A stretch of DNA of 64,000 bases from Pseudomonadota bacterium. Its GTDB lineage: Bacteria > Desulfobacterota > Desulfarculia > Desulfarculales > Desulfarculaceae. The DNA lies in assembly GCA_018819925.1 (NCBI GenBank), contig JAHJPG010000094.1, positions 1 to 64,000 of the forward strand, given 5' to 3'. Made by a program: the position numbers and the translations under genes. The stretch's first letter is position 1; the number at the start of each line of letters is the position of its first letter. The notes beneath the pieces were generated by a model. That model was given only the letters and a program-made list of their open reading frames with translations. It had not been told where the DNA came from and searched no databases. Below are positions 26,409 to 32,589 of this stretch, in pieces.

Positions 26409-26681
26409 TCCACCACCACATATCTAATAGGATAAGCCACAATTAATAGTCGATCCGCTACTTTTTTCCCGGACACCCTGCAATGGGACCATGCCTCACC
26501 GCTGAACCCTATTAGTTGAAAGCATATAATCTTGCCCGTTTCCCACCACTGACCTGTCCCCGGCCTGACCTCATCCCAAAATTTCCGCCAAGGCGTGGGT
26601 TGGGCCCTCGGGCTGGACAAGCCCCCCTGCCAGCAGATATCTTCGGTGAATCACTTAACCACCCACCCGGAGGGCGCGAGC

Positions 26682-28355
26682 ATGAGCCACCGAAGCAAGG
26701 ACATCCTTTCGGGACCGCGCTGGGCCAAGGTTCGGGCCCTCATGAAATCCATGGGCCATAGCGACTACGACCTGGAGCGGCCCCTGATCGGGGTGGCCAA
26801 CTCCTTCAGCAACATCGTGCCCGGGCACTTCAACCTCAGGCAGGTGGCCGAGTCGGTCAAGCAGGGCGTATATCAGGCAGGGGGCACCCCAATGGAGTTC
26901 GGGGTCATCGGCTGCTGCGACGGGGTGGCCAACGCCCATCTGGGCATGCGCTACATCCTGCCCTCGCGGGAGGTCATCGCCAACTCGGTGGAGGTGATGG
27001 CCCAGGCCCACCGCCTGGACGCCCTGGTGCTCTTGGGCTCCTGCGACAAGATCGTGCCCGGCCTGCTCATGGGCGCGGCTCGCCTGGACCTGCCGGCCAT
27101 CCTGGTCAACGGCGGGCCCTCCCTGGGCGGCTGCCAGTTCGACGGGCGCTCCTCGGACATAACCTCCCTGGCCGAGGGAGTGGGCATGCTGGCCACGGGC
27201 AAGCTGGACGAGGAAGGCTTCGCCCGCCTGGAGGACGGGGTCATGCCAACCTGCGGGTCCTGCTCCTTTTTGGGCACGGCCAACTCCATGGGTTGCGTGG
27301 CCGAGGGCATGGGCATGTGCCTGCCGGGCAGCGCCACCATCCCGGCGGTGTACGCCGCCCGCCTGCGTTCGGCCCAGGCCGCCGGGCGACGCATCGTGGC
27401 CATGGTGGACGAGGGCCTGAGCGCCCGGCGCATCATCAACCGCCAGGGCCTGGAGAACGCGGTGCGCCTGGGCATGGCCATGGGCGGCTCCACCAACCTG
27501 GTGCTGCACCTTTTGGCCATCGCCTACGAGGCCGAGGTGGAGATGGGGGTGGAGGTCTTCGAACAATTTTCCCGCACCACCCCCCACGTGGCCAAGATCT
27601 ACCCCGCCGCGCCGGCCAACGTGCCCGACTTCCACGCGGCGGGCGGGGTGCCGGCGCTGATGCGCGAGATTCTGCCCCTGCTGCACGCCGGGGCCCTGAC
27701 CGTGAGCGGCCAGACGGTGGGCCAAAACGTATCCGAAGCGGCCAAGACCGGCGATGCCATCATCCGCGGCATGGACCACCCCTGGTCGGCTCAAAGCGGC
27801 CTGGCGGTGCTCCGGGGCAACCTGGCCCCGGAGACGGCAGTGACCAAGCCGGCGGCCATCGATCCGGCCATGCAGCGCTTCACCGGGCGGGCCCATTGCT
27901 TCGACTCCGAGGACGCGGCCAACCAGGCCATCATGGAGCGGCGCATAGAGCCGGGCGAGGTGGTGGTAATCCGCTACGAGGGGCCCAAGGGAGGGCCGGG
28001 CATGCCCGAGATGGCCCTGGCCATGAAAATGCTATATGGGCAGGGCCTGGCCCTGAAGACCGCCCTGGTCACCGACGGCCGCTTCTCGGGCACCAACAAC
28101 GGCTGCTTCGTGGGGCACATTTCGCCCGAGGCCGCCGAGGGGGGGCCGCTGGCCGCGGTGCGGGACGGCGACGAGATCACGGTGGACATCCCTGGCCGCC
28201 AGATCAACCTCCGGATTAGCGAGGATGAGCTGGCCGAGCGCATGGCTGCCTGGCAGCCGCCGCCGCCCAAGATCGCCAGCGGCTACCTGGCCCTGTACGC
28301 CCGCCTGGCGGCTTCGGCCGCCAAGGGGGCCATCATCCCCCACCGGGCAGGCTAG
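26682..28355 (+). CDS. ilvD: Dihydroxy-acid dehydratase (IlvD/Edd family)
   Basis: A 557-residue iron-sulfur dehydratase. Visible motifs are GCCDGVANAHLGM, LGSCDKIVPGLLMGAARLDL, MPTCGSCSFLGTANSMGCVA (cluster cysteines), YEGPKGGPGMPEM and TDGRFSGTNNGCFVGHISPE. In branched-chain amino acid synthesis it converts 2,3-dihydroxyisovalerate to 2-oxoisovalerate. The ATG at 26682 has GGAGG 8 bp upstream; a longer frame exists but has no support. It stands without other ilv genes, and the SGTNNGCF motif differs from the usual SGGT form, so a related sugar-acid dehydratase activity is possible. Confidence 0.88.
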   Translation: MSHRSKDILSGPRWAKVRALMKSMGHSDYDLERPLIGVANSFSNIVPGHFNLRQVAESVKQGVYQAGGTPMEFGVIGCCDGVANAHLGMRYILPSREVIANSVEVMAQAHRLDALVLLGSCDKIVPGLLMGAARLDLPAILVNGGPSLGGCQFDGRSSDITSLAEGVGMLATGKLDEEGFARLEDGVMPTCGSCSFLGTANSMGCVAEGMGMCLPGSATIPAVYAARLRSAQAAGRRIVAMVDEGLSARRIINRQGLENAVRLGMAMGGSTNLVLHLLAIAYEAEVEMGVEVFEQFSRTTPHVAKIYPAAPANVPDFHAAGGVPALMREILPLLHAGALTVSGQTVGQNVSEAAKTGDAIIRGMDHPWSAQSGLAVLRGNLAPETAVTKPAAIDPAMQRFTGRAHCFDSEDAANQAIMERRIEPGEVVVIRYEGPKGGPGMPEMALAMKMLYGQGLALKTALVTDGRFSGTNNGCFVGHISPEAAEGGPLAAVRDGDEITVDIPGRQINLRISEDELAERMAAWQPPPPKIASGYLALYARLAASAAKGAIIPHRAG

Positions 28356-28585
28356 GCCGCTTGGGCGAAAGGGCCAAGAAAGCGCCGCCCATCGCCTGGT
28401 AATCCACTGGCCGCGCCCGGGGGCATGCCACGTATAATTTAAAATCAAGGGCGGAGATGCGCCCCTCGCACCGCATGAGAAGCTGTGGATATGGAGCTGT
28501 CATTTATTAACGGCTTCGTGGCCCGGTTGCCGGATTCGTATCAACCCGAGGCAGTTGGGCGCCTCATCACCCATGGAGGGTAACA

Positions 28586-29812
28586 ATGGTTCGTTTGCGG
28601 GACCTGCCCGAGCCCCTGGGCGCCAACCTGGCCGAACTGCCTTGCCCCGAGTTCCCCGATACGCCTTGGGTCCGGCCTTCGGCCTTGGCCGATTGCCGGG
28701 TGGCCGTGATTTCAACAGCCGGGCTGCACCTGCGCGGGGACGCTCCCTTCAGCGGCTTTTCCGGGGAATACAGGGTCATCCCGGGCGACGCGGCGGCCGC
28801 AGACCTGGTGATGAGCCACATCTCCACCAACTTCGACCGTAGCGGCTTTCAGCAGGATTGGAACTTGATGCTGCCCCTGGACCGCCTGCGCGAGTTGGCG
28901 AAGCAGGGGGCCATAGGCTCTCTGGCCTCCTATCACTACTCGTTCATGGGCGCCACGGACCCGGCCCCCATGGAGCAGGCCGCCCGGGAAGTGGCCGGGC
29001 TGCTCAAGGCCGATGCGGTTGACGCCGTTTTGCTGGTGCCGGTGTGACCCCACTGCACGCGCGCCGTGGGCGGGCTGAGTCACTACCTGGAACAAGAGGG
29101 GCTGGCCACCACCCAAATCAGCTTGATTCGAGAGCACAGTGAGACGATCAAGCCTCCCAGGGCGCTTTGGGTGCCCTTCGAGTTGGGCCGGCCTCTGGGA
29201 GTCCCCAATGACCCGGCTTTCCAGGGGCGCGTGCTGCTTGCGGCCCTGAAGCTTCTGGAAGCGCCCTCCGGGCCGGTGTTGATCGATTTTCCGGAAGAGG
29301 CTCCCGCCAGCGCCCCCCAGGCCGAGCCTTTGGCTTGCCCAATATCGTTGCCCCAGGAGCAGGAGGACCTGGGCAGCGACGAGGGGTTGCGCCAGGCTTT
29401 TTTGCGTGAGGTGGGCCAGATGACCATATGGCACCGGGAAGCCGAGAAAAAGCGGGGCCGGACCACCTATGGGGCCAGCGGATTGGAGCCCATGGCCGCC
29501 GCCCGATTCCTGGCGGGTTTTCTGGACGGCGGAGCGCCTCCCAATCCCAGAAACGACCTGAGCCTGCCCTCCCTGGCCAAGCTGGCCAGCGAGGACATCA
29601 AGGCCCTGTACCTGGAGGCCGTCACCGCCCGCCCCGGCGGCGCGGCCGACAGCGCCGGCCTAATGGATTGGTTCTTCGGTCAGTGTGCCGCCGGGCGGCT
29701 GTTTTTGAGGCTGCGGGAGGTGATGGGCGCCAGCACGGACCCGGAAACCAGGCTGCTGGGCAAGAAGCTTATGGTGCCCGTGTCCCAGGCCAGCCGCAGG
29801 GCGCCCGCATAA
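28586..29812 (+). CDS. Selenoprotein of the glycine/betaine/sarcosine/D-proline reductase selenoprotein B family (in-frame TGA)
   Basis: A 408-residue protein if TGA at 29045-29047 is read as selenocysteine (residue 154). Family landmarks occur on both sides in one frame: NFDRSGFQQDWNLMLPLDRL, LASYHYSFMGATDP and VDAVLLVPV before the TGA; PHC, then ALWVPFELGRPLGVPNDPAF after it. The resulting U-x-x-C motif is the expected active site. A CCCAC/GTGGG hairpin (29049-29070) just after the TGA is a plausible bacterial SECIS. GGAGGG precedes the ATG. The C-terminal 160 residues extend beyond the common short form. Likely a thiol/selenol reductase; substrate unknown. Confidence 0.88.
29045..29070 (+). 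promoter_or_regulatory. Sec-coding TGA and candidate SECIS hairpin
   Basis: TGA at 29045-29047 is followed at once by a stem of CCCAC (29049-29053) and GTGGG (29066-29070) with a 12-base GC-rich loop. Position and size suit a bacterial SelB-binding element within the coding sequence. The fold is read by eye. Confidence 0.55.
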
Positions 29813-30087: not shown

Positions 30088-32589
30088 ATGTTCTTCACCA
30101 CCTTGCTGTACAATGCGGCCCTTCTTTTGGCCCTCGGCTACCTCTACAGCCTGATCGCCCGCCACTGGGATAAGCACAACCTCGCGGGCCAAGTCTACAA
30201 AGGGCTTCTTTTTGGCGGGGTGGTCCTGGGGGTCATGGCCAACCCCGTGACCTTCATGCCCGGAATTGTCTTTGACACCCGTTCGGTGGTGGTGAGCATC
30301 GCGGGGATGTTCGGCGGCCCGGTCACCGGGGCCATCGCGGTGGTCTTTGCCAGCGCGTTTAGGGCCTGGACCGGCGGCTCGGGCGCCTTCACCGGCGTAT
30401 TGGTGGTTTTTGTCTCGGGTCTTCTTGGCGTAGCCTACTATTACTGGAAAAAAGGACCGCGCCAAGCCATGCGCCCGGCCCCCCTCTACGGCTTCGGTCT
30501 CCTGGTCCATATCGCCATGCTCCTGTGCATGCTCACACTGCCCTGGCCGGCGGCATTGCTGGTGCTAAAGAAAATTTCCCTGCCGGTGTTGTTGATATAT
30601 CCGGTGGTCACCATGCTTTTGGCGCTAATGCTGGCGGAAGGCGAATCGAACCTCGAGGCCGAGAAGGCCCTGGAGGCCAGCGAGAGCCGCTTTCGGCTCA
30701 GTTTCGAAAACGCCAATATCGGCATGGTATTAACCGGGCTTGATGGCCGTTTGCTTAGGATCAACGACCAGTTTCGCGGGATGCTGGGCTATGGCAGCGA
30801 AGAGTTGGTGGGCAAATATTTCAATGACATCAGCCACCCGGATGACCATCAGGCCGGGTTGGGATTTGTCAGCCAAGCGCTTGCAGGAGGGAAAGAGTCG
30901 GCCCAGCTTGAAAAACGCTATCTTCACAAAAGCGGAAAGCCGGTTTGGTGCAATGTTTCGGCCACGCTTTTGAAAGACCCCAAGGGGGCGCCGAGCCATT
31001 TCATAACCACCGCCCAGGACATCACCGAGCGCAAGCGGGCACAGCAGGCATTGCAACAGAGCGAGGAGAAGTTCTCCCTGGCTTTTCTGACCGCGCCCTA
31101 CGCCATCGCCATCACACGGGCGGAGGACGGCGCCTTCGTCGATGTCAATGACGCATTCACCTCCCTGTCCGGGTTTACCCGCCAAGAAACACTGGCCGGT
31201 TCGTCGATCGGACTGGATCTGTGGGTCGATGAAGAAGATCGGCAGCGCGTCGTGGCCGATCTTGGCGCCGGACGCGCCGTGGTGGGCCGGGAGTACCAGT
31301 TCCGGACCAAGAGCGGCGATATCATCACGGGCTTGTTCTCCGCCCAGCCGATTTTGTTGAGCAATGGGCCCTGTATTATGTCCAGCATCAACGACATCAC
31401 CGAGCGTAAGCGGGCGGAGGAAGAAAAAGAACGCCTGGAGTCCCAACTGCGCCAGGCTCAAAAGATGGAGGCGGTGGGGATCTTGGCCGGGGGCATCGCC
31501 CACGACTTCAACAACATCCTGGGCGCGATCATGGGGTACGTCGAGTTGGCTCAGAACCTGGCCCTGGAGGGGCGGTCCAACGTCGCCGAACTGGCCCAGG
31601 TGCTTCAGTCGGTTTATAGGGCGCGCAATCTGGTGCGGCAGATGATGACCTTCAGCCGCAAGACGGAGGCGGACCTAATGCCGCTGGGTCTCAACAAGGC
31701 GGTCCGGCAGATCACGCAAATGCTGGAGCACTCCCTGCCCAAAATGATAGCCATAGAAACCCGTTTGGCTTCGGACCTGGAGCTCGTCAACGCCGACTCC
31801 ACCCAAATGGAGCAGGTGCTGCTGAACCTGGCCACCAACGCCGCAGACGCCATGCCCGAGGGCGGCAGGCTGGTCATTGAAACCCAGAACATAATTCTTG
31901 GCGAACAGTACAGCCAACAGCACCTGGATGTGGGGCCCGGCCGCTACGTGCTGCTAATGGTGTCGGACACGGGGCACGGCATCGAACCCCAGACCATGGA
32001 GCACATCTTCGATCCCTTTTTCACCACCAAGGAGGTGGGAAAGGGCACGGGGCTGGGACTTTCCACGGTATATGGCATCACCAAGGGACACGGCGGGCAC
32101 GTGTACTGCTATAGCGAACCCGGCATGGGCACCACCTTCAAGGTATATCTTCCCGCGTATCAGGCCGGGGCGGCCGCATCCGCCTTGGAGGAGACCCTGC
32201 CCGAGCAAATTCTAGGTGGCACGGAAACCATACTGCTGGTGGATGACGAGTTGGTCTTGCGGGACCTTGGCGCCCGCGCCCTGGAGAGCATGGGTTACCG
32301 GGTGCTCACCAAAGCCAACGGCGAGGAGGCGTTGGAAACTTATCGCTCCCAAGGGGATGAAATTGATTTGGTGGTGATGGATATTGGCATGCCCGGCATG
32401 GGCGGCCACAAGTGCCTGCTGGAGATATTGGCCATCAACCCAAAGGCCAAGGTGGTCATCGCCAGCGGCTATTCGGCCAACGGCCAGGTGAAAGCCTCGC
32501 TGGAGTCCGGCGCCGCCGGATTCGTGGCCAAGCCCTTCCGGCGGCTGGACCTGCTGGCCACGGTGAGGAGCGCGCTGGACAAAAAGTAA
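30088..32589 (+). CDS. Hybrid sensor histidine kinase with LytS-type 5TM, two PAS, HisKA, HATPase and receiver domains
   Basis: An 833-residue membrane sensor. Residues 1-190 form a 5TM LytS/YhcK-type region (GIVFDTRSVVVSIAGMFGGP). Two PAS domains span about 205-315 and 325-445. The HisKA phosphoacceptor is the His in GGIAHDFNNILGAIMGYVEL near residue 471. The ATPase domain has NLATNAADAMPEGG, VSDTGHGI and GKGTGLGLSTVYGITKGHGG. A C-terminal receiver has the phospho-Asp in VVMDIGMPG near 764. No regulator gene is adjacent, so its output goes elsewhere. The ligand is unknown. Confidence 0.93.
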   Translation: MFFTTLLYNAALLLALGYLYSLIARHWDKHNLAGQVYKGLLFGGVVLGVMANPVTFMPGIVFDTRSVVVSIAGMFGGPVTGAIAVVFASAFRAWTGGSGAFTGVLVVFVSGLLGVAYYYWKKGPRQAMRPAPLYGFGLLVHIAMLLCMLTLPWPAALLVLKKISLPVLLIYPVVTMLLALMLAEGESNLEAEKALEASESRFRLSFENANIGMVLTGLDGRLLRINDQFRGMLGYGSEELVGKYFNDISHPDDHQAGLGFVSQALAGGKESAQLEKRYLHKSGKPVWCNVSATLLKDPKGAPSHFITTAQDITERKRAQQALQQSEEKFSLAFLTAPYAIAITRAEDGAFVDVNDAFTSLSGFTRQETLAGSSIGLDLWVDEEDRQRVVADLGAGRAVVGREYQFRTKSGDIITGLFSAQPILLSNGPCIMSSINDITERKRAEEEKERLESQLRQAQKMEAVGILAGGIAHDFNNILGAIMGYVELAQNLALEGRSNVAELAQVLQSVYRARNLVRQMMTFSRKTEADLMPLGLNKAVRQITQMLEHSLPKMIAIETRLASDLELVNADSTQMEQVLLNLATNAADAMPEGGRLVIETQNIILGEQYSQQHLDVGPGRYVLLMVSDTGHGIEPQTMEHIFDPFFTTKEVGKGTGLGLSTVYGITKGHGGHVYCYSEPGMGTTFKVYLPAYQAGAAASALEETLPEQILGGTETILLVDDELVLRDLGARALESMGYRVLTKANGEEALETYRSQGDEIDLVVMDIGMPGMGGHKCLLEILAINPKAKVVIASGYSANGQVKASLESGAAGFVAKPFRRLDLLATVRSALDKK

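What the first reader, a model, noticed from the sequence alone, without database searches (positions are those of the whole stretch)
28586..29812. Selenoprotein with in-frame TGA and extended C-terminus
Two frames usually called as two genes (28586-29044 and 29066-29812) are one gene: same frame, separated by one TGA, with family homology continuing on both sides and giving a U-x-x-C active site followed by a hairpin. It belongs to the GrdB/PrdB selenoprotein B family but stands alone, without GrdA, GrdE or PrdA partners, and carries about 160 extra C-terminal residues. The lone, long form has no clear substrate.
Basis: partly seen in the sequence, partly recalled or inferred. Interest (0 to 1): 0.7.

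Follow-up and report, generated by a model that had tools for sequence, protein, structure and literature searches.

The report
Lone selenoprotein with unknown helical tail
A gene usually split in two at a stop codon is really one selenium-containing enzyme related to glycine and proline reductases, working without the usual partner subunit and carrying an extra helical domain of unknown role that is shared across three bacterial phyla.

Summary
Window 28586-29812 is one 408-codon gene with an in-frame TGA at 29045-29047 (U154, motif U-P-H-C). The genome has SelA, SelB, SelD and tRNA-Sec(UCA). Of 45 full-length 'long' rows, 44 have TGA at this codon and one has Cys. A hairpin 12-28 nt after the TGA is supported by compensatory changes (33 cells against 10.0 in shuffles; 0 of 500 as high) and by the strongest synonymous constraint in the gene; folding the window alone does not show it. 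The protein is a PrdB-sized core (about 21-225) plus a C-terminal helical domain (about 265-395), predicted confidently (pLDDT 93.8) but matching no Pfam or NCBIfam family and no PDB fold at useful significance. Long forms make one clade (SH-aLRT 99) over three phyla. By NCBI cut-offs it is neither PrdB nor GrdB. The GrdE/PrdA family (PF09338) is absent from 7 of 8 long-form genomes tested, this one included. Best reading: a stand-alone selenol reductase attacking a small electrophilic organic substrate. Three intact relatives, and some decayed copies, are followed by an HTH-MEDS regulator; the window gene is not. Substrate unproven.

The parts
28586..29812 (+). whole gene: 408-aa long-form GrdB/PrdB-like selenoprotein, ATG to TAA, one in-frame TGA read as Sec
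28575..28579 (+). GGAGG, likely ribosome-binding site, 6 nt before ATG
   Evidence: sequence
28646..29260 (+). PrdB-like alpha/beta core (residues 21-225)
   Evidence: TIGR04483 match 21-225, E 1.9e-30 but under its cut-off; alpha/beta model
29045..29047 (+). TGA = Sec154, first residue of U-P-H-C (C157 at 29054-29056)
29059..29075 (+). SECIS-like hairpin: arms 29059-29064 and 29070-29075 (5 of 6 pairs in the window, G-G mismatch at the third), loop 29065-29069 CGTGG
   Evidence: synonymous constraint
29321..29362 (+). low-confidence linker, residues 246-259, holding Cys251 (Cys in 40 of 45 rows)
   Evidence: pLDDT under 50; column counts
29378..29770 (+). C-terminal helical domain, residues 265-395, no family match; E275, D337, W362 in all 45 rows

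Best explanation
The gene makes a stand-alone selenoenzyme. Shown by sequence: UGA154 is kept as a Sec codon with a conserved SECIS-like hairpin in a genome with the full Sec machinery; Sec154 and Cys157 form a U-x-x-C pair where GrdB and PrdB have theirs; a helical domain of single origin follows; no PF09338 partner was found in the genome. Inferred: the Sec154 selenolate attacks a small electrophilic organic substrate (a polarised C-X bond, X = N, S, halogen or O), as proposed for GrdB-type proteins; Cys157 resolves the intermediate as a Se-S bond that a thioredoxin-type system reduces; the C-terminal helical bundle binds or closes over the substrate, or builds the oligomer, in place of the PrdA/GrdE subunit. 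The weakest step is the class of substrate: the only hints are the HTH-MEDS regulator next to some relatives and the published GrdB-like fluoroacetate reductase.
For: Sec machinery. 44 of 45 long rows TGA, 1 Cys. Hairpin: 91.7% of cells paired (shuffled mean 81.9), 33 compensatory cells (10.0), covariation 0.385 (0.195), none of 500 shuffles reaches these three; six slid versions all lower. In the one Cys form, by eye, only 2 of the 6 pairs remain, as expected if the hairpin serves Sec insertion. Synonymous constraint peaks at codons 157-162, top of 182 windows (155-162 in the first set). Core similarity to PrdB, GrdH and GrdF in 15 of 15 members. Long form one clade, SH-aLRT 99, 45 long and 63 short rows. 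C-terminal domain pLDDT 93.8, invariant E, D, W. PF09338 absent from 7 of 8 long-form genomes, control record rings three times. HTH-MEDS regulator downstream in G108 (ATGA overlap), G415, G307. Passages of PMC10838667: a fluoroacetate-reduction operon with GrdB-like FarB and a FarE lacking the pyruvoyl cysteines, so this fold may act without a Schiff base.
Against: No assay exists and no neighbour is conserved across the family, so the substrate is a guess. The MEDS link is in 3 of 47 sources examined and not at this window. FarB has a FarE partner; the present protein has none. U-x-x-C is also the motif of ordinary thiol-disulfide enzymes. GrdA, GrdC and GrdD were not searched genome-wide. 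The assembly is 96.43% complete in 145 contigs, so a partner could be missing from it.
Confidence: 0.5

Rival explanations
1. A thiol-redox or detoxification selenoprotein (peroxide, persulfide or disulfide reductase) that uses U-x-x-C like a thioredoxin-family enzyme, with no C-X bond chemistry.
For: U-x-x-C motif; Cys forms of the short kind occur on Roseomonas and Haematobacter plasmids; PrdB-type selenoproteins were abundant in surface-ocean data (passages of PMC1088965 and PMC2398784), where amino-acid fermentation is unlikely. Local regulators are diverse: MarR beside L059, GntR beside L062.
Against: The core matches PrdB and GrdB, not thioredoxin families, and the family's characterised members cleave C-N bonds.
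Confidence: 0.22
2. A GrdB-like component of a multi-subunit amino-acid or betaine reductase whose partners are encoded elsewhere in the genome.
For: Same superfamily; a PF09338 gene and a separate GrdB-like gene occur together in G002, which also has the long form.
Against: PF09338 absent from 7 of 8 long-form genomes; in G002 it sits with its own GrdB-like gene on another contig; the long form has no conserved neighbour.
Confidence: 0.1
3. The linker Cys251 is a processing site: the chain is cut there and the C-terminal part carries a new N-terminal pyruvoyl, or Cys251 is a mobile resolving thiol, so the long form is a PrdB and its partner in one chain.
For: Cys251 is Cys in 40 of 45 rows although it lies in an otherwise variable, low-confidence linker; PrdA forms its pyruvoyl from a cysteine (title of Kabisch 1999, seen in reference lists).
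Against: 2 of 45 rows have Ala and 3 a gap at that column; no PF09338 similarity anywhere in the protein.
Confidence: 0.06
4. Two separate genes or one decayed gene; the TGA is a plain stop.
For: Some relatives are decayed: G380, G294, G365, G325, and a fragment in this genome.
Against: 44 of 45 full-length rows keep TGA at one codon and the other has Cys; covarying hairpin; complete Sec machinery; third-position excess on both sides.
Confidence: 0.03

Closest known systems
D-proline reductase subunit PrdB (TIGR04483)
   Same: Core residues 21-225 align to PrdB 13-219; U-x-x-C at the same place.
   Different: 106.1 bits against a cut-off of 300; about 180 extra C-terminal residues; no PrdA/PF09338 in the genome.
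GrdB, GrdF, GrdH: protein B of glycine, sarcosine and betaine reductase (PF07355, TIGR01917, TIGR01918, NF040794, NF040795)
   Same: The C-terminal half of GrdB, up to and past the Sec motif, aligns.
   Different: GrdB's long N-terminal part is missing (residues 75-203 align to 266-398 of 431); all four NCBI cut-offs missed; no PF09338 partner.
Short lone PrdB-like selenoproteins
   Same: Same core, mostly with Sec; nearest branch to the long clade in the tree.
   Different: End soon after residue 230-260; motif usually U-x-x-C-N or U-x-x-C-H instead of U-P-x-C-T.
FarB, fluoroacetate reductase component of Cloacibacillus (PMC10838667, passages read)
   Same: GrdB-like selenoprotein proposed to act on an electrophile with which no Schiff base can form.
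   Different: GrdB type with a FarE partner, transporter and radical SAM enzyme in one operon; not compared here by sequence.

Membership tests
Selenoprotein (Sec by UGA) | SelA, SelB, SelD and tRNA-Sec in the same genome | tested here: met
Selenoprotein (Sec by UGA) | homologues continue past the UGA, with UGA or Cys at that site | tested here: met
   44 TGA and 1 Cys of 45 full-length rows
Selenoprotein (Sec by UGA) | bacterial SECIS hairpin shortly after the UGA | tested here: met
   compensatory changes; not visible in the single-sequence fold
Selenoprotein (Sec by UGA) | Sec present in the protein | not testable with these tools
   needs 75Se or mass spectrometry
GRDB domain superfamily (PF07355) | score over the Pfam gathering cut-off | tested here: met
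   40.5 against 22 bits; 15 of 15 members of A1 match at E up to 1
PrdB, D-proline reductase | score over the TIGR04483 equivalog cut-off | tested here: not met
   106.1 against 300 bits
PrdB, D-proline reductase | PrdA-type partner (PF09338) in the genome | tested here: not met
   no match in G000; control record gives three matches
GrdB, GrdF or GrdH protein B | score over the TIGR01917, TIGR01918, NF040794 or NF040795 cut-off | tested here: not met
   45.5, 52.7, 58.9 and 61.1 bits against 602.2, 65.45, 800 and 775
GrdB, GrdF or GrdH protein B | GrdA and GrdC/D partners in the genome | not tested
Long-form clade described here | C-terminal helical domain with E275, D337 and W362, one origin | tested here: met

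The most novel reading that the evidence does not exclude
A self-contained selenocysteine C-X bond reductase, possibly a reductive dehalogenase or demethylase for small organic compounds: the helical domain replaces the pyruvoyl subunit, so one polypeptide does what the Grd and Prd complexes need two or three for, and in part of the clade an HTH-MEDS sensor of simple hydrocarbon derivatives controls it.
Probability: 0.2. Interest if true: 0.75.

Novelty: new variant of a known kind. Interest (0 to 1): 0.45.

Why it matters
Standard gene calling cuts this protein at the TGA. PrdB-like selenoproteins were counted as 'proline reductase' in environmental surveys (PMC1088965, PMC2398784), although the one here has neither the partner nor the score of a proline reductase. 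A clade in three phyla with an unannotated, well-folded domain gives a defined target for asking what these widespread lone proteins reduce. If the substrate is a halogenated or otherwise electrophilic small molecule, a one-chain selenoenzyme for it would matter for carbon and halogen cycling.

Tried and rejected
Single-sequence RNA fold: no excess stability; dropped as evidence. RNAalifold on the first 16 sequences gave no favourable covariation term (+0.09); only the wider set of 44 did. In one search one of five measures did not exceed shuffles (further pair types, 9 against 8.8; 316 of 500 as high), and 'pairs with a change on both sides' was reached by 14 of 500.

Structure matches: no PDB chain is a sequence relative; Foldseek gives nothing at E<=0.001 for the whole model or for the C-terminal domain (best E 3.4); VIA-align's best Z is 8.6 for the core (LacI-type regulator, rmsd 3.4, 137 aligned) and 3.7 for the tail (rmsd 4.2, 87 aligned). 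Taken as common arrangements; a missed fold is not excluded.

Neighbourhoods: no gene is shared across the family. HpaB (2 sources), IlvD (2) and a histidine-kinase cluster (2) were judged incidental, a short-chain dehydrogenase cluster (7) promiscuous. RecQ-type helicase, ClpS-type and unnamed genes recur beside three Chloroflexota-phylum loci only. No relative in phage records. The only transposase seen next to a long gene is an IS110 type at L056.

Rows dropped before counts: nine loci (five partial or frameshifted, one short paralogue, three duplicates) before the 45-row set. L051 (genome G087) was kept although it has an in-frame TAA at codon 128. Six duplicate short rows were dropped before the tree. 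The tree is a quick search with SH-aLRT only, and the chosen outgroup did not fall on one side of one branch.

Full report
OBSERVATION. The frame 28586-29812 is open but for one TGA at 29045-29047; read as U it gives 408 residues with ...LLVPV-U154-P-H-C157-T-R-A-V.... A GGAGG precedes the ATG by 6 nt. Neighbours are an IlvD-type dehydratase upstream (26595-28355) and a PAS histidine kinase with a receiver domain downstream (30088-32589); none of ten annotated neighbours is a Grd or Prd gene.

SELENOPROTEIN. The assembly (4.03 Mb, 145 contigs, 96.43% complete) has SelB on C51, tRNA-Sec with anticodon TCA on C61, SelA on C119 and SelD on C9, itself with an in-frame TGA. Many control genomes ring weakly for SelB and SelD; the hits here are over the curated cut-offs. 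Relatives keep the codon: among 45 full-length long rows, 44 have TGA and one, L186 of genome G467, has Cys.

HAIRPIN. Folded alone, the window's 51 nt show no excess stability. Across 44 ungapped sequences, columns 15-20 pair with 26-31 (window 29059-29064 and 29070-29075; loop 18-22 nt after the TGA). Of 252 cells 91.7% are standard pairs (shuffles 81.9), 33 cells have compensatory changes (10.0), covariation is 0.385 (0.195); none of 500 shuffles reaches these three, and all six slid controls are lower. Further pair types (9 against 8.8) do not exceed shuffles. The window itself forms 5 of 6 pairs. In the Cys form only 2 of 6 pairs remain (by eye). Codons 157-162 have the highest synonymous conservation of 182 sliding windows (0.659 against 0.433 overall). 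The distance of the loop and its conserved G-U fit what I recall of bacterial SECIS elements; that criterion comes from no call.

FAMILY. Pfam GRDB is passed (40.5 against 22 bits), but TIGR04483 PrdB (106.1 against 300), TIGR01918 (52.7 against 65.45) and the GrdB, GrdF and GrdH models are missed. The core aligns with nearly all of PrdB; GrdB's N-terminal part is lacking. A tree of 45 long and 63 short N-domains puts the long rows on one side of a branch (SH-aLRT 99; quick method, outgroup not clean). So the tail was most likely gained once.

DISTRIBUTION. Matches spanning core and tail occur in 14 of 395 genomes of the window's phylum, 9 of 396 of the phylum of G442 and 11 of 400 of the phylum of G441; one of the 14 (G087) has an in-frame TAA. 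G442 and G441 hold the loci whose record titles name an Acidimicrobiales and a Dehalococcoidia MAG, that is, Actinomycetota and Chloroflexota. No call names the window's phylum; I take it for Desulfobacterota from recall. In the genus 2 of 8 genomes have the long form. G1225 has four copies, three in one stretch with a PIN-domain gene among them.

TAIL. A model of the tail alone from 45 sequences has pLDDT 93.8, all helical. E275, D337 and W362 are invariant in 45 of 45, T367 in 44, Y342 in 43. No Pfam or NCBIfam family covers it, and no PDB chain matches by sequence or fold at useful significance.

PARTNERS. PF09338 (GrdE and PrdA type) is absent from G000, G031, G143, G160, G431, G441 and G442, and present in G002, where it lies on C68 beside a separate GrdB-like gene; the Peptoclostridium plasmid used as control rings three times. 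GrdA, GrdC and GrdD were not searched genome-wide.

REGULATOR. Of 47 sources with flanks, three (G108, G415, G307) have related 233-263 aa proteins directly downstream, with HTH_17 and MEDS domains; in G108 stop and start overlap as ATGA. Decayed long genes in G294, G325 and, as fragments only, G380 and G431:C41 are followed by the same kind of gene. MEDS is described as a sensor of simple hydrocarbon derivatives, as in DcmR (passages of PMC11507031). A MEDS gene also lies about 2.7 kb from the sarcosine reductase genes of Peptoclostridium. The window gene has no such neighbour.

MECHANISM. Shown: Sec codon, U-x-x-C, conserved tail, no PF09338 partner found. Inferred: Sec154 attacks a polarised C-X bond, Cys157 resolves, a thiol reductant regenerates, and the tail does what a partner subunit does elsewhere. 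A precedent for GrdB-like chemistry on a non-amino-acid substrate is the fluoroacetate-reduction operon (PMC10838667, passages read), where FarE lacks the pyruvoyl cysteines. Precedent is not proof.

LITERATURE. The 2026 selenoproteome review (PMC13188914, passages) lists GrdB and PrdB but, in what I saw, no long form; the 2022 review (PMC9312934, passages) likewise. Searches for selenoprotein with 'MEDS domain' (0 papers) and for selenoprotein, PrdB, 'C-terminal domain' and fusion together (1 paper, the 2026 review) found no description. The library holds open-licence papers only.

VERDICT.

Noticed in passing
L099 1468-1808; L100; L101 2853-3017; L102; L107; and L004 1501-1587 (this genome, contig C132): Decayed copies of the long gene, some with a large internal deletion that leaves both ends (G294 residues 1-65 then 356-404; G365 1-38 then 367-406; G380 broken and deleted); the window's own genome keeps a short tail fragment.
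   Followed up: partly
L138 and L139 (genomes G523, G556): Short PrdB-like forms in which both motif positions are TGA (U-P-I-U), a possible two-selenium version of the U-x-x-C site.
   Followed up: no
L193 6491-11327 (G1225:C27): Three long-form genes on one strand in one stretch, with a PIN-domain gene among them.
   Followed up: no
L103 9282-10313 (G307): A radical SAM gene with DUF3641 lies just upstream of the long gene; a radical SAM gene is also in the published fluoroacetate operon.
   Followed up: no
L186 7001-8095 (G467): The only long form found with Cys in place of Sec; the hairpin after it is largely lost (2 of 6 pairs, by eye).
   Followed up: partly
L111 and L112 (Roseomonas and Haematobacter plasmids): Lone Cys forms annotated 'selenoprotein B family protein' in Alphaproteobacteria, beside SelO and cobalamin genes respectively.
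   Followed up: no
G000:C9:7683-8606: SelD of this genome carries its own in-frame TGA.
   Followed up: no
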